Shown: positions 6,765 to 34,222 of the stretch, one piece after another
Position numbering within the stretch: the stretch's first letter is position 1
How the letters are laid out: the number at the start of each line of letters is the position of its first letter
Origin: Acidobacteriota bacterium
GTDB lineage: Bacteria; Acidobacteriota; Terriglobia; Acidiferrales; UBA7541
DNA: 37,308 bases
Assembly (NCBI GenBank): GCA_003152355.1
Contig: PMAA01000193.1
Location: 1-37,308 of the forward strand
Reading direction: 5' to 3'
Translations under genes and position numbers: made by a program
The notes under the pieces: generated by a model
Told to the model about the DNA's origin: nothing
Databases searched by the model: none
What the model saw: the letters and a program-made list of their open reading frames with translations, nothing else

Positions 6765-6781
6765 ACCGTTTATTAAACGGT
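6765..6781. promoter_or_regulatory. 17-bp perfect palindrome ACCGTTTATTAAACGGT, candidate operator upstream of GH2
   Basis: Arms ACCGTTTA/TAAACGGT around T6773; half-site CGTTTATT at 6751; core repeated upstream of the APC gene (11032-11044). Confidence 0.6.
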
Positions 6782-6844
6782 GCGAGCATCAGACGGCGTG
6801 GTAGAATGCGCGGACGCTTTTCGCATTTCGATTCGAGGGATTGC

Positions 6845-9574
6845 ATGCCGAAACTCTCATTGAGGCTCGAAGCACGCCTGCACACCACCGAGGACGTGTT
6901 TCATCGAACCATCGGAACCATTTCAAGATGTTTTTTGGTGGCTGCCGTGGCTTTCGCGGCCGCCACGCTATGGCCAGTTGCTGCCGCCGCGCAAACATTC
7001 GAAACCCCGACTCTTGCACTCAAATCAGAGTGGAAAGTTCAATCTTCGGCGCGAATCTTCGGCGGAGGCGGCAGCGCAGTTTCTCAACCGGGCTTCCCTG
7101 CTCCGGATTGGTATCCAGCGACGGTGCCGAATACCGTTGTGGCTGCGCTCGTCGACGACAAAATATACCCGGACCCAAACTACGGCATGAATCTTCGCAC
7201 TTATCCGGGAATGAGCTACAAGATCGGCGAAAATTTTTCGTGGGAGGAAATGCGGAAAGACAGTCCATTTCGCGTGTCGTGGTGGTATCGGACGGAATTT
7301 CAGGTTCCGGCGGACTGGCGCGGCAAGAGCATCTGGCTGAACTTTCAAGGAATTAATTACCGCGCGAACATCTGGCTGAACGGGCGGCAAATCGCCAACT
7401 CGAACGATGTCGCCGGCGCATTTCGCCGTTACGAATTTGAAGTCAGTTCGGCGCTGGCGATCGGTAAAGCGAACGCCCTGGCCGTGGAAATCTTTCCGCC
7501 GACTTCGCACGATCTCGCGGTGACATTCGTGGATTGGAATCCGCTGCCGCCCGATAAGGACATGGGCATCTGGGGCGATGTGTTCCTGGTGGCGAGCGGG
7601 CCTGTGGCCGTCCGCAACGCGCAGGTGGAAACCAAACTCGATCTGCCAAGCCTCGACAACGCGCACTTGACTGTCCGCGCGGAGGCGCACAATTCGACGC
7701 CGCAGCCCGTCGAAGGAGTTCTGCGCGGAACATTGGGCGACGTGAAGTTCGAGCAGAACGTTTCGCTCGCCGCCAACGAAACAAAAGAGATTACTTTTAC
7801 GCCCGAGCAATTCGCGCAGTTGAATCTCGCCGCGCCGCACATCTGGTGGCCGTACGGCATGGGCAAGCAGGACATGTATTACCTTCAACTGGAATTCGAT
7901 GTCGGCAAGAAGACTTCGGATCGCATGGGGCTCAGGTTCGGCATCGATCAAATCACGTCGAGGCTCACTTCGAAAGGCGGCACTCAATTCAGCGTGAACG
8001 GAAAAGACGTCCTGATTCGCGGCGGCGGCTGGACGCCGGACATGTTTCTTCACCAGGATCCCACGCGCTGGGAAGATGATTTGCGCTACGTTCGCGGCAT
8101 GAACTTGAACACGGTGCGGCTGGAAGGCAAGTTGATGTCCGACGATTTTTTCGATCTGGCCGACCGGTACGGAATTTTGGTGATGCCGGGCTGGTGCTGC
8201 TGCGATCACTGGGAAAAGTGGGGCAAGTGGAAACCGGAAGATCGCAAAGTGGCCACGGCATCGTTGCACGATCAGATCGCGCGGCTGCGGAATCATCCGA
8301 GCGTTTTTGTGTGGCTCAACGGCAGCGACAATCCGCCGCCCGCTGAAATCGAAAAAGCCTATCTCGAAGTGCTGAAGCAAGAGCACTGGCCGAAGCCGGT
8401 GCTTTCTTCAGCGTCGGAGAAACGAACATCGGTGACAGGCCCGTCCGGCGTGAAGATGACGGGACCGTACGACTACGTTCCGCCGAATTACTGGCTCGAA
8501 GACCACGAACATGGCGGAGCCTTCGGATTCAACACCGAGACGAGCCCAGGCCCCGCGATTCCGACGGTGGACAGCTTGAAACGCATGCTGCCGGAAAAAG
8601 AGCTATGGCCGATCAACGATGTCTGGGATTATCACGCGGGCGGCGGGCAATTCAAAAACCTCGGCTTATATAATTTAGCTCTCGACAAGCGCTACGGCCC
8701 TGCGAAAAATCTGGCAGATTACGAGTGGAAATCGCAAGCGACGGCGTACGAGGGCGAACGCGCGATGTTCGAGGCGTTCGGGAGAAACAAAGGCACGGCG
8801 ACCGGCGTCATCCAATGGATGCTGAACAATGCGTGGCCTTCGACTATCTGGCATCTCTATGATTTTTACCTGCGGCCTGGCGGCGGATATTTCGGAACGA
8901 AGAAAGCTTGCGAACCGCTGCACGTTCAGTATTCCTACGACAATCAGTCCGTTGTCGTGGTGAACGATGAACGGACTTCTTTCACCGGATTGAAAGTAAC
9001 CGCGAAAGTTTACGACATCAACGCAACAGAGAAATTTACGCACAGCGAGACGATTGATTCGCCAGCCGGCAGCGTGACCACGGCTCTGAAAGTGCCCGAC
9101 GTGCGCGGGATTACGACGACCTATTTCCTCAATCTGACGCTTGAAGACTCCACGGGCGCGGCCGTGAGCTCGAATTTCTATTGGCTCTCAACCAAGCCCG
9201 ACGTCCTCGCATCGGACGCCTATACCTGGTACACGACGCCGCAAAGATCGTTTGCCGATTTGCGCGATCTCGCACGGCTTACGCCCGTGACGCTGAAATA
9301 TTCCATTGATACTCAGAACGAAAAGGACGAGGGCACGACGACGGTTCACGTTTCCAATCCGAGCGAACATCTGGCGTTTCTCGTTCACTTGCGCCTCACC
9401 CGTGGAGCCGGCGGTCAGGAAATATTGCCGGTTTTGTGGGATGACAATTATTTCGAACTGCTGCCGGGTGAATCGCGCTACGTCAAAGCCAGCTACTGGT
9501 TGCGAGATCTTGGCAAGGACGAGCCCGAGCTTGAGGTGAGCGGATGGAACGTGACGAGCGCCGCGCCGAACTGA
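6845..9574 (+). CDS. Secreted glycoside hydrolase family 2, exo-beta-D-glucosaminidase-like
   Basis: Signal peptide (FLVAAVAFAAATLWPVAAAAQ), GH2 sandwich WLNFQGINYRANIWLNGRQIA, WLNGSDNPPP and GFNTETSPG catalytic regions, MLNNAWPSTIWHLYDFYLRPGG. Start ATG 6845; the open frame extends to 6683 but overlaps the RND gene. Confidence 0.88.
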   Translation: MPKLSLRLEARLHTTEDVFHRTIGTISRCFLVAAVAFAAATLWPVAAAAQTFETPTLALKSEWKVQSSARIFGGGGSAVSQPGFPAPDWYPATVPNTVVAALVDDKIYPDPNYGMNLRTYPGMSYKIGENFSWEEMRKDSPFRVSWWYRTEFQVPADWRGKSIWLNFQGINYRANIWLNGRQIANSNDVAGAFRRYEFEVSSALAIGKANALAVEIFPPTSHDLAVTFVDWNPLPPDKDMGIWGDVFLVASGPVAVRNAQVETKLDLPSLDNAHLTVRAEAHNSTPQPVEGVLRGTLGDVKFEQNVSLAANETKEITFTPEQFAQLNLAAPHIWWPYGMGKQDMYYLQLEFDVGKKTSDRMGLRFGIDQITSRLTSKGGTQFSVNGKDVLIRGGGWTPDMFLHQDPTRWEDDLRYVRGMNLNTVRLEGKLMSDDFFDLADRYGILVMPGWCCCDHWEKWGKWKPEDRKVATASLHDQIARLRNHPSVFVWLNGSDNPPPAEIEKAYLEVLKQEHWPKPVLSSASEKRTSVTGPSGVKMTGPYDYVPPNYWLEDHEHGGAFGFNTETSPGPAIPTVDSLKRMLPEKELWPINDVWDYHAGGGQFKNLGLYNLALDKRYGPAKNLADYEWKSQATAYEGERAMFEAFGRNKGTATGVIQWMLNNAWPSTIWHLYDFYLRPGGGYFGTKKACEPLHVQYSYDNQSVVVVNDERTSFTGLKVTAKVYDINATEKFTHSETIDSPAGSVTTALKVPDVRGITTTYFLNLTLEDSTGAAVSSNFYWLSTKPDVLASDAYTWYTTPQRSFADLRDLARLTPVTLKYSIDTQNEKDEGTTTVHVSNPSEHLAFLVHLRLTRGAGGQEILPVLWDDNYFELLPGESRYVKASYWLRDLGKDEPELEVSGWNVTSAAPN

Positions 9575-9605
9575 GCCGATCCCGGCCGCTGCGTTCAGTT
9601 CGGCG

Positions 9606-10964
9606 TTATTCCGCCGCGACAGCGCGGAATGGCCACGTTGCCGAAAGCTTGGCGCGAATCAGAAACACCACGATGCCTACGGCCAGCGTCAGTATCCCCA
9701 CGCCGACATAGCCCCATCCTGACGTAGTAAAGACGAACGCCCAGCCGAAAAACGCAATCACGGCCGGCAATGGATACAGCCACATCTTGAAGGGTCGCGC
9801 TGAGTCCGGAAATTTCTTGCGCAACAGCGGAATTGCATACACCTGCCCGAGAAACTGCACGAGGATTCGCGTGGTAATCAGCGCGCTGATCACCTGATCG
9901 AGTTTGAAGAACGCCGCGCCGATGGAAACGGCGCCAAGAACGAGCAGCGAAACATACGGATAATTCTTCGTAGGGTGCAGCTTTCCGAAAACGCGAAAGA
10001 AATAGCCGTCGTTCGCCGCCGCATACGGAATGCGCGAGTATCCGAGAAGAAGCGCGAAGACGGAGCCGAACGCCGTCCAGAGAATCATCACCGTGATAAC
10101 GATCGCGGCGTTGCGTCCGTACAGGCGTTGCATGAAATCGGAAACGAGGAACGTTGAATTCATCGCTTCGCGCCACGGCACGACCCCTATCAACGCGAGG
10201 TGGATGAGGATATATCCAACGGCGCAAACGGCAATCGAATACAGGATCGAGCGTGGAATCACGCGGCCGGGATCGCGGACTTCATCGCCGATATAGCATA
10301 CGTCGTAATAGCCCATGTAGTTGTATACGGCGACGAGGGTCGCGCCGCCGAGACCCAGGAAAAATCCGCGCTGGAATGCGAATGCTCCTGGCGGAAAATC
10401 AAACGCGAGTTTCGCGTTGAAATGCGGAAAGCCGACGATGAGTACGGCCGCCATGGTGGCAAGGGTTCCAATCCACAGCGTGACCGTGACTTTGCCGAGA
10501 AAATTGATTCGCCTGCTCAACAGAATCACGGCAACGACCCCGACGCCCGCTGCTACAAACTGCTGGCCGCGCATCGTGAGCCCAGGCCAAAGATACGCCG
10601 TGTAATTTCCGAAGCCGATCATTCCAGACGCAATTTCAAGCGGCCCGCTGATCACGAATTGCCAAATGAAGAGGAAAGCCATCAGGCGGCCCCACGTCTG
10701 ATGCCCGTAAGCCTCCCGCAAGAAGTGGTACGTGCCGCCTGAACCGGGCAAAGCCGCGCCGAGTTCGCTCCAGATCATGCCGTCCGCCACGACAATCAGC
10801 GCGCCAGTGATCCAGCCAAGCATCGCCTGCGGGCCGTTCATTGTCGCCATTAAGAGAGGAATGGTGATGAACGGGCCGACGCCGACCATATTTGTGATGT
10901 TGAGCGCGGTCGCTTGAAGCAGGCCGAAGCCGCGAGTCAGGTGCGGATTGGAATCGTTGGCCAT
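9606..10964 (-). CDS. APC-superfamily amino acid/amine permease
   Basis: 452 aa, multiple hydrophobic helices; LLQATALNITNMVGVGPFITIPLLM and ALPGSGGTYHFLREAYG motifs of APC transporters; ATG start. Confidence 0.92.
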   Translation of the reverse strand: MANDSNPHLTRGFGLLQATALNITNMVGVGPFITIPLLMATMNGPQAMLGWITGALIVVADGMIWSELGAALPGSGGTYHFLREAYGHQTWGRLMAFLFIWQFVISGPLEIASGMIGFGNYTAYLWPGLTMRGQQFVAAGVGVVAVILLSRRINFLGKVTVTLWIGTLATMAAVLIVGFPHFNAKLAFDFPPGAFAFQRGFFLGLGGATLVAVYNYMGYYDVCYIGDEVRDPGRVIPRSILYSIAVCAVGYILIHLALIGVVPWREAMNSTFLVSDFMQRLYGRNAAIVITVMILWTAFGSVFALLLGYSRIPYAAANDGYFFRVFGKLHPTKNYPYVSLLVLGAVSIGAAFFKLDQVISALITTRILVQFLGQVYAIPLLRKKFPDSARPFKMWLYPLPAVIAFFGWAFVFTTSGWGYVGVGILTLAVGIVVFLIRAKLSATWPFRAVAAE

Positions 10965-10984
10965 TTCTTAAACTGAGGCGCGCC

Positions 10985-11013
10985 ATTGTAGCCGCGGGAT
11001 ATGAGCGAAGCAA
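10985..11013 (-). promoter_or_regulatory. Candidate sigma70-type promoter for the APC permease
   Basis: Minus strand TTGCTT-17 bp-TACAAT (-35 at 11008-11013, -10 at 10985-10990), about 21 bp upstream of the ATG. Confidence 0.4.
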
Positions 11014-11031
11014 TGGAAGAGATGGGCCCGG

Positions 11032-11044
11032 CGTTTAATAAACG
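11032..11044. promoter_or_regulatory. 13-bp palindrome CGTTTAATAAACG, candidate operator upstream of APC permease
   Basis: Reverse complement is CGTTTATTAAACG, identical to 6767-6779; 68 bp upstream of the APC start codon. Confidence 0.6.
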
Positions 11045-11206
11045 GGAAAGGTTTCGGCGTCTTTTTCGAGAATTTGAACAAATCGGAGGCCGGCGACATT
11101 TGGCAACAGAACCGGAAGGCGGAGGCCTGCGGGCTCTGAATTCATCGTATATCTCCGAGTGGATCAGCGGCGACGATTCATCTGCGACGATTCGAGACTT
11201 GTTGAA

Positions 11207-16160: not shown

Positions 16161-17849
16161 CTATGGCTTCGCCGGCGGAGGTTCCGGGATCGCCTCGCCA
16201 TCTTTTCGCGGATCGGAGGCGCCAAAATTGATTTTGTTCTTGAAATCGCGAAGCACCGCCTGGCCTCCGCCAAAGTGCGAAGAAAAGCCAAGCCACTCCG
16301 TGATCAAGTGTCCGCGCGAGGTTAAGTCGTCGCGAACTGCCTGGGGGACGCGATGTTCCATGTCCACGTCGCAGCCGGAGAATGTGTACTTCGTGAAACG
16401 CGGTGTCTCGAGGGCGGCTTGTATGTTCATTCCGCCGTCGGCGATGTCGGAGACAAATTGCGCGTGAGCCTGCGCTTGATTGAAACCGCCCATGATACCG
16501 AAGGCGATTCGCTCGTCCCCGCGCGTCATGAAGCCCGGAATGATCGTGTGCAGCGGACGCTTGTGGCCCGCAAGCGCGTTAGGAGACGCCGGGTCGAGGC
16601 TAAAGAGGCCGCCTCTGTTCTGGAGCACGAAGCCTGCGCCGCCGGCGACAACGCCGGAGCCAAACCCGCTGTAATTGCTCTGTATCAGCGAGACCATGTT
16701 GCCTTCGGAATCGACGACGGTGAGATAGGTTGTGTCTCCGCCTGCTGGCAGCGTCCCCGCCGCAACATTGCAGTTGGCGCGCTTCATGTCAATTTGCGCG
16801 GCGCGATTTTTGGCGTACTCCTTCGACAGCATTTGCGCGACGGGAATCGCGCTGTATTTCGGGTCGCCGACATATCTCAAAAGGTCCGCGTAGGCCAGCT
16901 TCTTGGACTCGATCATCACGTGCAACGCATCTGCCGACAACGAGCCAAACTGCGCCACGGGAAACCGCTCCATCAGATTCAGCATTTCAAGCGCGGCGAT
17001 TCCCTGCCCGTTCGGCGGAATTTCGTACACGGTCCAGTCGCGATAGGTCGTCGAAATCGGCTCGACCCACTCGCTGGAGTAGGCGGCAAGGTCGTCGAGG
17101 TTCATCGTGCCGCCCAGGCTGCGAGATGTTTCTACGATGGCGCGCCCGATCGGGCCTTCGTAATACGCATCCCGGCCCCCTGCAGCGATTTTTTCGAGGG
17201 AATTCGCGAGATCCGCGTTGCGAAACACCTCGCCTAATCTCGGAGAGTGGCCGCCAGGAATGTAAGTTTTCGAGAAGTTCGCGTCCGCTGCAAAACTGGG
17301 AGAATCTACCACCCAATTTTCGGCCGTTCGCTCGGGAACGGGGAAACCTTCGCGCGCATAGTGAATTGCCGGCGCAAGCACTTCGGCGAATTTCTTCCGT
17401 CCGAAGCGGTCGAGCAATTTCGCCCAGCCATCCACCGCGCCGGGAACTGTTACGGAATTGATGCCCGATTGAGGCATCGCTGTAATTCCATGCGATTTCA
17501 GAAAATCAATCGTCAAGCCGGCGGGCGACCAGCCGCTTGCGTTGATCCCGTACAGTTTCCCCGTCTTCGCATCGTAAACAATTGCGAAGAGGTCGCCGCC
17601 GATGCCGTTCATCATCGGCGCGACCACGCCCATCACGGCATTCGTGGCCACCGCCGCATCAATTGCGTTGCCACCATGCGCGAGAATCGTCGCGCCGGCT
17701 TGAGCCGCGAGCGGGCTTTCGGCAGACACAATCCCGCCGCGGCTCACAACCATCGAGCGCCCTTGATCTCGATCTTGGGCGTGGATACCGAGCAAAAAAC
17801 TCATCCCCGCGAGCAAAACGAACAACAGGCTGGCAGCAACGCTCTTCAT
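16161..17849 (-). CDS. ggt: Gamma-glutamyltransferase (secreted)
   Basis: GGIVSAESPLAAQAGATILAHGGNAIDAAVA, catalytic region AGGDTTYLTVVDSEGNMVSLIQSNYSGFGSG, FGIMGGFNQAQAHAQ; signal peptide after ATG 17849. Confidence 0.93.
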   Translation of the reverse strand: MKSVAASLLFVLLAGMSFLLGIHAQDRDQGRSMVVSRGGIVSAESPLAAQAGATILAHGGNAIDAAVATNAVMGVVAPMMNGIGGDLFAIVYDAKTGKLYGINASGWSPAGLTIDFLKSHGITAMPQSGINSVTVPGAVDGWAKLLDRFGRKKFAEVLAPAIHYAREGFPVPERTAENWVVDSPSFAADANFSKTYIPGGHSPRLGEVFRNADLANSLEKIAAGGRDAYYEGPIGRAIVETSRSLGGTMNLDDLAAYSSEWVEPISTTYRDWTVYEIPPNGQGIAALEMLNLMERFPVAQFGSLSADALHVMIESKKLAYADLLRYVGDPKYSAIPVAQMLSKEYAKNRAAQIDMKRANCNVAAGTLPAGGDTTYLTVVDSEGNMVSLIQSNYSGFGSGVVAGGAGFVLQNRGGLFSLDPASPNALAGHKRPLHTIIPGFMTRGDERIAFGIMGGFNQAQAHAQFVSDIADGGMNIQAALETPRFTKYTFSGCDVDMEHRVPQAVRDDLTSRGHLITEWLGFSSHFGGGQAVLRDFKNKINFGASDPRKDGEAIPEPPPAKP

Positions 17850-17887
17850 TCGTTCCACTCGCTTTGATTTGCTGTGCTGTGCGGCGG

Positions 17888-18424
17888 CTACGATGCCTTC
17901 TTGCGCGATGCGGGAGGCACGACGCCATTGTTGCGGTAATACACGACGAGCTGGCCGTAGTGCTCGCCCATATGCTCGATGTAACCAGTCCAATAATCGA
18001 GATGCTTCAGAATTTCGGCGTCGCCGCTTTGTTGAATCGCGGTCGCGCCATCGGCCACCGATTTCTTGAGGTAATCAACGATCTGCGCTTTGGTCTTAAA
18101 CTGGTCTGCCGGCGGATTGTCGCCCTCCACTCCCAATTTTTTCTTCACCGCCAGGTTGACCATCTCATAATTCGATCCCGCGAGGTGGCGCATCACGTCG
18201 GCAAAGCTCCGGACGTCGGGGTTCGGCCGATAGCCGTACTTGTCTTCCGGCCAATCTTCAGCCATGGCCACGAGCCGATTGCCGATGTCGTTCCAGTTAT
18301 CGAGGATCGCTGACGTCGGCGTCACCGGCTTCTTCTGTGCACTGTCCTGAGCGCGTGCCGCAGTCCCTGCGATCAAGAATGCGAGTGCGGCCAAGATACT
18401 CCCTGCAAACAAACGTCTCTTCAT
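17888..18424 (-). CDS. DinB-family protein, exported
   Basis: Signal peptide; WNDIGNRLVAMAEDWPEDKYGYRPNPDVRSFADVMRHLAGSNYEM...HMGEHYGQLVVYYRNNGVVPPAS; RBS AAGGAG before ATG. Confidence 0.87.
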   Translation of the reverse strand: MKRRLFAGSILAALAFLIAGTAARAQDSAQKKPVTPTSAILDNWNDIGNRLVAMAEDWPEDKYGYRPNPDVRSFADVMRHLAGSNYEMVNLAVKKKLGVEGDNPPADQFKTKAQIVDYLKKSVADGATAIQQSGDAEILKHLDYWTGYIEHMGEHYGQLVVYYRNNGVVPPASRKKAS

Positions 18425-18578: not shown

Positions 18579-19265
18579 TCACGCCGCTGTGACGACGATA
18601 CCCGTGCATCGCTCGCGCCCGGTCCGGCGATATCCGTGCAAAACGCTCGAATCGAAATAGATGGCGTCACCGGCAACGAGCGAATTTTCCTCCGAGCCGA
18701 CCCGGATCGCCAATTTGCCCGTCATCACGTAAATCATCTCGACGCCGGTGTGATGATGCAGCCGGATTTTATCGGGCGCAACCGATTCGAACTCGGCCCA
18801 GTAGGAATTCAATTTGCGGTCGACGACCGAAAAATCCAGAGATTCGAAGTGGTACGAGACGTTTTTTCCCGCAGCGGTCTCGGGAAACTTCTTGCGCTCC
18901 CGCTTCCGGACGACCGCCAGCGGGTGACGGGCGCGGTCGTCAACGAAGAAGCTGTCCAAACCGACGCTGAAGACCATCGCGATTCGCAGAAGTGTTGGCA
19001 AAGTCGGATGCAGCTTTCCGCGCTCGAGCTTTGAGAGCATGGCGGGCGATAACCCTGTATGCCGGCCCAACTCCACCAGTCCGAGCTTCTTCCGCAGCCG
19101 CAGCGCCCTCAATTTTTCGCCGATCGCGTATCGCGTGAGACCCTTCTGTAAGGCTTCTGAGAGCATGCGCTTCCCTTTTCCGATGTCGAATTTCCCCTGA
19201 GGAAAACAACGGGCGGAAATTTTCACGCCATTCACATCACTTTCTATTGTTGTCTGTATTTTCAT
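18579..19265 (-). CDS. XRE-family HTH transcriptional regulator with C-terminal cupin domain
   Basis: LRALRLRKKLGLVELGRHTGLSPAMLSKLERGKLHPTLPTLLRIA plus cupin HHHTGVEMIYVMTGKLAIRVGSEENSLVAGDAIYFDSSVLHGYR. ATG 19265 preferred over TTG 19274. Confidence 0.92.
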   Translation of the reverse strand: MKIQTTIESDVNGVKISARCFPQGKFDIGKGKRMLSEALQKGLTRYAIGEKLRALRLRKKLGLVELGRHTGLSPAMLSKLERGKLHPTLPTLLRIAMVFSVGLDSFFVDDRARHPLAVVRKRERKKFPETAAGKNVSYHFESLDFSVVDRKLNSYWAEFESVAPDKIRLHHHTGVEMIYVMTGKLAIRVGSEENSLVAGDAIYFDSSVLHGYRRTGRERCTGIVVTAA

Positions 19266-19292
19266 TGCAGTCAAATAGTTTTTCTCTATGAT
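19265..19292 (+). promoter_or_regulatory. Candidate sigma70-type promoter for fasciclin gene
   Basis: TTGCAG (19265-19270)-16 bp-TATGAT (19287-19292); overlaps the XRE-cupin start codon region. Confidence 0.5.
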
Positions 19293-32044: not shown

Positions 32045-33175
32045 TTAGGCGGGCTGTACTTTTCGGCGCAGCGCCGCCCATATCCCCGCGCCACGTCCCT
32101 TTGTCTTTGTTCTGAAGATGGATAGCAGAACCATCGCCGTGAAAATGATGGCGAGCCCCAGCGTCGCCATCGGAATCGTCTGGGCATGCTTCCTGAGAAT
32201 CGAAAAGCGGCCGTAGACAAACTCGATGTGCACCCAATACACGAGCAGCGAAGTCTGACCGAGTTGGATAACCGGACTGAAGGTCCAGCGCGGTAGGCCC
32301 CACCGGCACCACCCATAACTAATCGCGATAATCGCGAACAAAACGCCCACGCGCGCGAGAAAGAAGTTTGGACTGGTGTGCCAGAAATCGTACTCCGAAT
32401 AAATCTGCACCGGCCGCGCGTCAAGCCACAGCGCCAATTTGTATGAAATCACGCCGCCCACGCCAAACGCTCCCACAGCGAACCCTAAATTTTCACGCGA
32501 CCATTCGCTGAATAGCAAAAATCCCGCCGCGAGTCCCGCAAACGCAAACGCCGTCCATGGAAATATCGGGAAGAGCCACGGCTGCGGCTTGTCAAATGTA
32601 TGCACTCCGTTGATGTAGGACTCGAGATACCACGGCAGCCAATGCGGACGCCACGTCGTCCAGAGCGGCGGTGTTGCGAGCGCGATTGCGGCTGAAGTTA
32701 CTGCTGCGAGCATGATATTCGCCGCGCGCGTTTGGGTGAATCGGCAAACGACACCCATCAACATGATCGAAACGCCAATCGTATTCAGAACATCCACGCG
32801 CAGCAGGTCCGACCATGGAGCCCACGGCTGGCCGAGGATGAACTCCTGCACGCGGAAAAGCACGCCGAGGCCAAATATCTCGGCCCCGCGGCGAATCGTC
32901 GTTATCGCGATTTCGTTCGCCGGCACATTTTTTTGCCGCATGCGATCGGTGATAAGCGCAAACGAAACTCCGGCGAGGAATAAAAATAGTGGCGCGGGCA
33001 GAGTTCCGCCAAGCTGCGAAAGCTGAATGAATTTCGATTGCCGCGCCGCGCCGCCGAGCCACGAATCGTAGCAATGCGTCTGGAACATCGCGACGCACGC
33101 GAGTCCCCGCATCCAATCAATGTACGCCAGGCGATTTTTCGACGGCTCAGGCATCGGCCAAAACGCACCAAGCAT
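32045..33175 (-). CDS. DUF1624/HGSNAT-like multi-pass membrane acyltransferase-type protein
   Basis: RLAYIDWMRGLACVAMFQTHCYDSWL, LFLFLAGVSFALITDRM, LGVLFRVQEF, RVDVLNTIGVSIMLMG. ATG 33175; longer frame has a non-hydrophobic, low-plausibility extension. Confidence 0.82.
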   Translation of the reverse strand: MLGAFWPMPEPSKNRLAYIDWMRGLACVAMFQTHCYDSWLGGAARQSKFIQLSQLGGTLPAPLFLFLAGVSFALITDRMRQKNVPANEIAITTIRRGAEIFGLGVLFRVQEFILGQPWAPWSDLLRVDVLNTIGVSIMLMGVVCRFTQTRAANIMLAAVTSAAIALATPPLWTTWRPHWLPWYLESYINGVHTFDKPQPWLFPIFPWTAFAFAGLAAGFLLFSEWSRENLGFAVGAFGVGGVISYKLALWLDARPVQIYSEYDFWHTSPNFFLARVGVLFAIIAISYGWCRWGLPRWTFSPVIQLGQTSLLVYWVHIEFVYGRFSILRKHAQTIPMATLGLAIIFTAMVLLSIFRTKTKGRGAGIWAALRRKVQPA

Positions 33176-33241
33176 CGCCGAGCCATGCCGCCAAATCAAC
33201 TTTTTTAAAGTTCGTGAGTCGCCTGCGATAATATTCTGGCG

Positions 33242-34222
33242 ATGTGTGCGCAATCGCAAACTCGAGAGATGCCGCCCATCGCCGCCGCAATCATTTGGGC
33301 GGCGCTGATCGCGCTCGGCGTAACGTTGGGTATCTACCTCGGTTTCGGTGGAATTCGATTCGCCGCCGCGATGACGGTTTGCGGCGTGCTGCTGGCCGGA
33401 CACATTTTTCCAGCGGCGCCGCGCGTTCGAAATCAGTTACTCAGCTTGTTCGCGAAGTGTGGAGGCGTCTTCGCCGTAGTCATCCCGCTCGGAGCATTCA
33501 TCGTCTACTCGACGGCCGTCGCGGGCAATTGGAAAACGGCGCTGGCCGGCGCTGCCTACGTTCTATTGCCCACTCTCGTTCTCATCGGCGTAGCGCGAAA
33601 AGAAACCGCAACCTTCGTGGACTACCTCGCCGTCTTGCTGATTTGGCTGCCCGTCGAATTTCGCTGGATGTACAAGCTGCTACCGTATCCGCCGCCGCTG
33701 ACGCACACTCTCACCATCCTCCTCGCGGTGAACACCGCGCTCGCGGCGTTCCTATTTTCGCGCCAGCTTTCTGGCATCGGCTACTCGGTGGAATGGCGCC
33801 GCGGATTTGCAATGGCTGTCGCATTCAATTTCCTGGTTTTCATCGCCATCGCAATTCCGCTCGGTGAAGCGCTCGGCTTCTTGCACTTCGCTCCGAGTCT
33901 CACTCGATTGCGTTCGGTCCCGCTCGCCGCCATCGGAATTCTCTTCTTCACCGCATGGCCGGAAGAATTATTGTTCCGCGGCTTGCTTCAGAACTTGCTG
34001 ACGAAATCGCTAAAGAGTGAATGGGCAGGTATAATCGTGGCGGCTCTGGTTTTTGGCGCGTCGCATCTCAACAACGGCGGGTTCCCAAACTGGCGCTACG
34101 GCATTCTCGCGACGATTGCAGGAATTTTTTATGGCCGCGCGTGGATAAAGACGGGCTCGTTGCTTCCCGGCGCAATCGTTCACGCGCTCGTAGACGTCCT
34201 GTGGCACATCCTGTTTCGTTGA
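33242..34222 (+). CDS. CPBP-family intramembrane metalloprotease (Abi/CAAX-like)
   Basis: WPEELLFRGLLQNLL (EExxxR), VFGASHLNNG, LLPGAIVHALVDVLWHILF; multiple TM segments. Confidence 0.92.
   Translation: MCAQSQTREMPPIAAAIIWAALIALGVTLGIYLGFGGIRFAAAMTVCGVLLAGHIFPAAPRVRNQLLSLFAKCGGVFAVVIPLGAFIVYSTAVAGNWKTALAGAAYVLLPTLVLIGVARKETATFVDYLAVLLIWLPVEFRWMYKLLPYPPPLTHTLTILLAVNTALAAFLFSRQLSGIGYSVEWRRGFAMAVAFNFLVFIAIAIPLGEALGFLHFAPSLTRLRSVPLAAIGILFFTAWPEELLFRGLLQNLLTKSLKSEWAGIIVAALVFGASHLNNGGFPNWRYGILATIAGIFYGRAWIKTGSLLPGAIVHALVDVLWHILFR

What the first reader, a model, noticed from the sequence alone, without database searches (positions are those of the whole stretch)
6765..11044. Same palindromic operator upstream of convergent GH2 exo-glucosaminidase and APC permease: candidate amino-sugar regulon
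Seen: ACCGTTTATTAAACGGT (6765-6781) is a perfect 17-nt palindrome, and CGTTTAATAAACG (11032-11044) is the reverse complement of its 13-nt core; CCGTTTATTAAACG is shared as an exact 14-mer. The sites end 66 bp upstream of the GH2 ATG (6845) and 68 bp upstream of the APC ATG (10964). Both lie just upstream of -10-like hexamers (TAGAAT 6802-6807; TACAAT on minus at 10985-10990). A given 13-mer is expected about 0.001 times by chance in 37 kb. Inference: one dimeric regulator, not encoded between the two genes, co-controls a secreted exo-beta-glucosaminidase-like enzyme and a permease. If so, the APC permease may import a released amine such as glucosamine, which would be unusual for this family.
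Basis: partly seen in the sequence, partly recalled or inferred. Interest (0 to 1): 0.68.

Follow-up and report, generated by a model that had tools for sequence, protein, structure and literature searches.

The report
Shared operator for glucosamine scavenging genes
Two matching DNA switches sit in front of a chitosan-trimming enzyme gene and a neighbouring transporter gene in a soil Acidobacterium; the only third copy in the genome lies beside a sugar-sensing repressor gene, and many relatives pair the same enzyme with an amino-acid-type transporter under one shared switch, which suggests that this transporter type takes up the released amino sugar.

Summary
CGTTTAWTAAACG occurs twice in the 4.58-Mb genome, both times in this window, upstream of the convergent GH2 and APC genes. 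Among 399 genomes of the class only six others carry it, once each. The 11-mer core GTTTAWTAAAC occurs three times in the genome. The third copy lies between a LacI-family regulator gene (C268:9376-10503) and a TonB-type receptor plus YdjC deacetylase. Orthologues of this LacI (65-69% identity) in two other genera carry the same element at the same place, and in several it precedes the GH2 orthologue. In many other Acidobacteriota, GH2 is convergent with an APC permease (27 of 66 loci with room). In 19 of 26 GH2/APC pairs both promoters carry a CG-centred LacI-type operator, ATTRAAACGWWTYAAT (0 of 400 shuffled pairs). Some clusters add a glucosamine-6-phosphate-deaminase-like SIS gene and the LacI itself. 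The GH2 aligns with CsxA, including D469 and E541. Best reading: a LacI-controlled glucosamine-scavenging regulon. In the window's lineage the operator has become an AT-centred odd palindrome, the regulator's hinge helix has changed, and the usual APC subfamily is replaced by another. Binding, effector and transport are untested.

The parts
6765..6781 (+). Operator 1 (17-nt perfect palindrome ACCGTTTATTAAACGGT; core GTTTATTAAACG reads towards the GH2 gene)
   Evidence: shares the 12-mer GTTTATTAAACG with the site beside the LacI gene at C268:10628
11031..11045 (-). Operator 2 (CCGTTTATTAAACGC on the minus strand; the same core, same orientation relative to the APC gene)
6845..9574 (+). GH2 exo-beta-D-glucosaminidase-like enzyme with signal peptide; CsxA-type catalytic Asp495 and Glu565
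   Evidence: Pfam Ig_GlcNase 1.9e-29; top PDB hit CsxA 2VZS E 1e-196, D469 and E541 aligned
9606..10964 (-). APC-family permease (AA_permease_2), convergent with GH2
   Evidence: orthologues in other genera
6802..6807 (+). -10-like hexamer TAGAAT of the GH2 promoter (weak)
   Evidence: consensus scan finds no full promoter
10985..10990 (-). -10-like hexamer TACAAT of the APC promoter; TTGCTT 17 nt upstream
   Evidence: consensus scan finds no full promoter

Best explanation
The two palindromes are operators of a small LacI-family regulon for scavenging glucosamine from chitosan or deacetylated chitin fragments. The likely regulator is the LacI-family protein at C268:9376-10503. Without inducer it would hold down three transcription units: the secreted GH2 exo-beta-D-glucosaminidase, the APC permease, and a TonB-type outer-membrane receptor with a YdjC carbohydrate deacetylase. 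When an amino sugar or chito-oligomer binds, the repressor would release. The receptor would then bring in oligomers, the deacetylase and GH2 would cut off glucosamine, and the APC permease would carry it across the inner membrane. Shown by sequence: the three unique sites; their likeness to sites beside LacI orthologues; the recurrent GH2 + APC pairing; shared LacI-type operators in relatives; the conserved catalytic residues. Inferred: LacI binding to the window sites, direction of control, effector, and glucosamine as the substrate of this permease.
For: GTTTAWTAAAC occurs 3 times in 4.58 Mb: both window sites and the LacI/TonB gap. In G011, G032 and G055 the single genome-wide copy lies about 90 bp downstream of the LacI orthologue. 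LacI orthologues sit directly upstream of GH2 in G057, G032, G055, G059 and G053. LacI-TonB-GH2-APC occurs in G025 and LacI-GH2-SIS-APC in G057. SIS-APC-LacI, convergent with GH2, occurs in L196 and L197, with ATTGAAACGATTCAAT-type sites before the operon and a related site before GH2. 27 convergent and 3 co-directional APC genes lie within 2 kb of 66 GH2 loci with room. 19 of 26 pairs have the operator in both promoters, against 0 of 400 shuffled pairs. 37 of 76 GH2 upstream regions carry it, against 0 of 76 shuffled. The SIS protein matches the isomerase half of GlmS and NagB-II/GlmD models. GH2 aligns with CsxA. This genome lacks the usual GH2-linked APC subfamily (best 29%). A window-type APC (62%) lies next to GH2 in a Blastocatellia MAG.
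Against: The window operator is AT-centred and odd, not the CG-centred even palindrome seen in relatives and typical of LacI proteins (PMC4052901). The link to this LacI rests on an 11-12 nt core. No close relative with both genes is held, so the exact window arrangement is seen once. The APC orthologue in G032 (75%) has no such site and lies beside an FGGY kinase and an isomerase-like gene, which hints at another sugar. About half of the GH2 loci have no adjacent APC gene.
Confidence: 0.72

Rival explanations
1. The shared operator is real, but the regulator is not the C268 LacI protein (another dimeric factor, for example of GntR, ROK or TetR type), and the copy beside the LacI gene means that gene cluster is a target, not the source, of control.
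For: The palindrome is odd and AT-centred, which is unusual for LacI proteins (PMC4052901); no binding data.
Against: The element, exact or degenerate, recurs in the promoter next to the same LacI in six or more genomes of two other genera. Relatives with this LacI also have LacI-type CG-centred sites at the same promoters, including the LacI-containing operons of L196 and L197.
Confidence: 0.17
2. The regulon is real, but the permease carries something other than free glucosamine, for example an amino acid, another released sugar or an oligosaccharide.
For: APC proteins mainly carry amino acids and amines. The 75% orthologue in G032 lies with an FGGY kinase and an isomerase-like gene. APC paralogues lie with LacI, GH3 or GH4 and transaldolase genes.
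Against: Two distant APC subfamilies pair with the same GH2, and the SIS deaminase-like gene joins them.
Confidence: 0.4
3. The two palindromes are chance or non-regulatory repeats (terminator remnants, small mobile repeats).
For: A hairpin is possible at each, and operator 1 lies about 41 bp behind the RND pump gene.
Against: Only two copies in the genome, 4.3 kb apart, both upstream of gene starts; one rare copy in six of 398 other genomes. No T-run follows and the terminator scan does not list them. The flanks are unrelated.
Confidence: 0.05

Closest known systems
LacI-family local sugar regulons (RegPrecise compendium, PMC4052901)
   Same: LacI HTH plus sugar-binding domain; operators 63-67 bp before starts; few targets; receptor, hydrolase and permease under one repressor; tandem sites 13 bp apart in some relatives
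   Different: The paper's text does not mention Acidobacteria, chitosan or glucosamine. The window operator is odd and AT-centred, whereas 1173 of 1303 listed regulators have a CG-centred even palindrome
CsnR regulon of Streptomyces (ROK-family repressor of chitosanase genes, PMC6097792)
   Same: A palindrome shared by a chitosan hydrolase and a transporter operon; GH2 genes can belong
   Different: The linked regulator here is LacI-family, not ROK; the transporter is an APC permease, not the ABC system CsnEFG
CsxA exo-beta-D-glucosaminidase (2VZS), GH2 subfamily
   Same: Alignment over residues 54-904, both catalytic carboxylates, Ig_GlcNase domain
   Different: Acidobacterial; CsxA continues about 140 residues beyond the aligned part
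Archaeal chitin pathway Dac-GlmA (Thermococcus, PMC6566704)
   Same: Deacetylase plus exo-glucosaminidase logic; the SIS protein matches the GlmD/NagB-II deaminase models
   Different: The archaeal glucosaminidase is GH35 and its deacetylase is of another family; no LacI regulator
FrlA fructoselysine permease (APC family)
   Same: An APC permease that carries a sugar-amine compound; weak family match to the window APC
   Different: Far below the family cut-off (84 against 800 bits); different substrate

Membership tests
LacI-family regulon | Regulator with LacI HTH and periplasmic-binding-like sugar domain | tested here: met
   C268 protein: PF00356, PF13377, PF00532 above cut-off
LacI-family regulon | Even palindromic operator with central CG | tested here: not met
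   Window sites are odd and AT-centred; no ATTRAAACGWWTYAAT with up to 1 mismatch in the genome. Met in relatives. About 4% of LacI-family regulators have odd palindromes (PMC4052901), so this is typical rather than strictly defining
LacI-family regulon | Operators 30-140 bp upstream of start codons | tested here: met
   63 and 67 bp; range from PMC4052901
LacI-family regulon | Regulator linked to, or itself within, the regulon | tested here: met
   Third site adjoins the LacI gene; LacI adjoins GH2 in relatives
LacI-family regulon | Regulator binds the sites and is released by a sugar | not testable with these tools
   needs EMSA or DAP-seq
GH2 exo-beta-D-glucosaminidase (CsxA type) | GlcNase Ig domain and catalytic Asp/Glu pair | tested here: met
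   (D495, E565 invariant in 5 orthologues)
GH2 exo-beta-D-glucosaminidase (CsxA type) | Releases GlcN from chito-oligomers | not testable with these tools
   enzyme assay needed
APC family permease | Pfam AA_permease / AA_permease_2 | tested here: met
   6.1e-35, 121 bits against cut-off 27
APC family permease | Known substrate subfamily | tested here: not met
   No NCBIfam model reaches its cut-off
CsnR (ROK) regulon | Linked ROK-family regulator | tested here: not met
   Linked regulator is LacI-family

The most novel reading that the evidence does not exclude
In Acidobacteriota two distant APC permease subfamilies have been recruited as inner-membrane glucosamine importers in a LacI-controlled chitosan/chitin-fragment regulon. 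In the window's lineage the repressor's hinge helix and its operator have changed together, from a CG-centred site to an AT-centred site.
Probability: 0.35. Interest if true: 0.75.

Novelty: new variant of a known kind. Interest (0 to 1): 0.6.

Why it matters
Acidobacteriota are abundant in soils and some grow on chitin, but how they import glucosamine is not described in the papers found here. A conserved GH2 + APC + SIS + LacI regulon gives a concrete candidate and a small set of sites to test. It also suggests that 'amino acid permease' annotations in this phylum can hide sugar importers, and it offers a natural case of a LacI-type operator losing its central CG along with hinge-helix changes.

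Tried and rejected
Exact motif upstream of GH2 and APC orthologues: not found outside the genome except as GTTTAATAAA(C) beside the LacI gene. For the APC orthologues only the plus-strand loci were read in the right direction; whole-locus reading of G022 was not repeated. A near match at C61:11320 (2 mismatches) lies inside an apparent coding frame, not in a promoter. The six other class genomes with the 13-mer have unrelated neighbours. Terminator reading: not supported. A first control count included the APC genes and shared promoters, so it was replaced by the position list and shuffles. Literature searches for an APC glucosamine importer or an acidobacterial chitosan regulon gave nothing relevant. 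No structure prediction was run: a fold would not settle substrate or binding.

Full report
WHAT IS THERE. GH2 (6845-9574, +) and an APC permease (9606-10964, -) are convergent, each with the element 63-67 bp before its start codon. In all three genomic copies (below) the core reads GTTTATTAAACG in the direction of the downstream gene.

IS IT MORE THAN CHANCE. CGTTTAWTAAACG occurs at these two places only in the 4.58-Mb genome. The expectation from window base composition is about 0.05. In 399 genomes of the class, 7 have it and only this one has two; the six others have unrelated neighbours. The 11-mer GTTTAWTAAAC occurs three times in the genome. Three such matches are not by themselves clearly above chance: about 0.65 are expected from composition and the reversed control pattern has five. 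What is unusual is position. Two lie 4.27 kb apart (about 0.006 by simple arithmetic), and the third lies in one particular 135-bp slot (about 1e-4), described next.

THE REGULATOR. In genus g4, GH2 orthologues have a LacI-family gene immediately upstream, and the promoter between them carries GTTTAATAAA repeats just behind the -10 box. Searching this genome with that LacI gives a 68% identical protein at C268:9376-10503. The promoter behind it reads TTGACA-17-CAATAT followed by TGTTTATTAAACGTTTTAATGAAAATC: this is the third genomic copy. A TonB-type receptor (OMP_b-brl_4, CarboxypepD_reg) and a YdjC carbohydrate deacetylase follow. In G011 (another genus), G032 and G055 the single genome-wide GTTTAWTAAAC lies at the same place behind the LacI orthologue. 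G032 and G055 are close relatives and count as about one.

THE WIDER REGULON. A scan of genome contigs with an alignment of five GH2 proteins gave 80 loci, nearly all Acidobacteriota. Of 66 with at least 1.5 kb downstream, 27 convergent and 3 co-directional APC permeases were found within 2 kb of GH2. This APC subfamily is only about 23% identical to the window APC. Comparing the two promoters of each pair revealed a shared motif, in full ATTRAAACGWWTYAAT. In 19 of 26 pairs both promoters match ATTRAAACGWWT with at most one mismatch, against 0 of 400 shuffled pairs. Over whole loci of up to 18 kb, nearly all such matches lie before GH2 or about 45 bp before APC. 37 of 76 GH2 upstream regions carry the motif, against 0 of 76 shuffled. 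In L196 and L197 (the latter Candidatus Acidiferrum typicum) the LacI orthologue itself (64-65%) forms an operon SIS-APC-LacI, convergent with GH2, with the operator before the operon. In L224 a YdjC deacetylase shares the operator region with APC. In G057, G032, G055, G059 and G053 a SIS protein lies between GH2 and APC; it matches the isomerase half of GlmS and the NagB-II/GlmD glucosamine-6-phosphate deaminase models, below their cut-offs. These independent combinations point to glucosamine.

THE WINDOW AS A VARIANT. This genome has no ATTRAAACGWWTYAAT with up to one mismatch and lacks the usual GH2-linked APC subfamily (best 29%). Its APC belongs to another subfamily, with 67-75% orthologues in five genomes. 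One fragment of that subfamily (62%) lies next to GH2 in a Blastocatellia MAG, L231. The simplest reading is replacement of one APC permease by another under the same control. The operator also differs in type. LacI orthologues from CG-centred lineages have the hinge YRPNxxAR[FY]LRS[KR]. Those of G011 and genus g4 have K in place of that N. The window genome has H and TPFM in place of ARFL. The K forms are one clade; the window protein's place is unresolved, so this is one or two events, not a statistical test. A published precedent exists: loss of the hinge Ala/Leu coincides with loss of the central CG (PMC2329647).

THE ENZYME AND THE PERMEASE. GH2 carries the GlcNase Ig domain, and its best solved relative is exo-beta-D-glucosaminidase CsxA (E 1e-196), with CsxA D469 and E541 aligned to D495 and E565. 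That these are the acid/base and nucleophile of CsxA is from general knowledge. The permease is an APC member without a named substrate class. Its 75% orthologue in G032 lies behind an FGGY kinase and an isomerase-like gene, and paralogues lie beside LacI, GH3 or GH4 and transaldolase genes (these neighbours were named from their sequences by eye). APC permeases in this phylum therefore seem to accompany sugar catabolism generally, which weakens glucosamine as the only possible substrate.

LIMITS. Nothing here shows binding, effector or transport. The source is a draft genome (86% complete, 6% contamination), so further sites may be missing. The exact window arrangement is seen in one genome only. 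Taxonomy is inferred: contig G028:C32 (47,169 bp) has the same length as QHYI01000133.1, an Acidobacteria 'gp2' MAG, and G028 lies in the same family as the window genome.

Noticed in passing
LacI loci L097-L118 and L196/L197; hinge region after YRP: Hinge-helix residues (N to K or H; ARFL to TPFM in this genome) differ in just those lineages whose operators lack the central CG.
   Followed up: partly
G000 C112:36905-39312 (L077); G046 C243 (L080); G032 C43 (L069): APC permeases repeatedly sit in sugar-catabolism clusters (LacI, GH3 or GH4, transaldolase, FGGY kinase, isomerase-like), suggesting sugar-carrying APC proteins in Acidobacteriota.
   Followed up: partly
G000 C238:89959-93911 (L079:6960-10912): An APC paralogue overlaps by 4 bp the start of a secreted PIG-L/LmbE-type deacetylase-like gene; similar text lies beside APC genes in other genomes.
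   Followed up: no
L174, L175, L194, L234 upstream of GH2: Two LacI-type operators in tandem, 13 bp apart, a spacing reported as preferred in PMC4052901.
   Followed up: no
window 32045-33403 (-): Heparan-alpha-glucosaminide N-acetyltransferase-like (HGSNAT_cat, NagX-type) membrane protein, another amino-sugar gene in the window, with no copy of the operator.
   Followed up: no
window 18579-19274 (-) and 16161-17993 (-): XRE-cupin regulator and gamma-glutamyltranspeptidase genes near each other, of the type seen in amine or peptide metabolism.
   Followed up: no
L076:9274-9289: A CG-centred site ATTGAAACGAACCGAT (2 mismatches) about 100 bp before the LacI gene: possible autoregulation.
   Followed up: no
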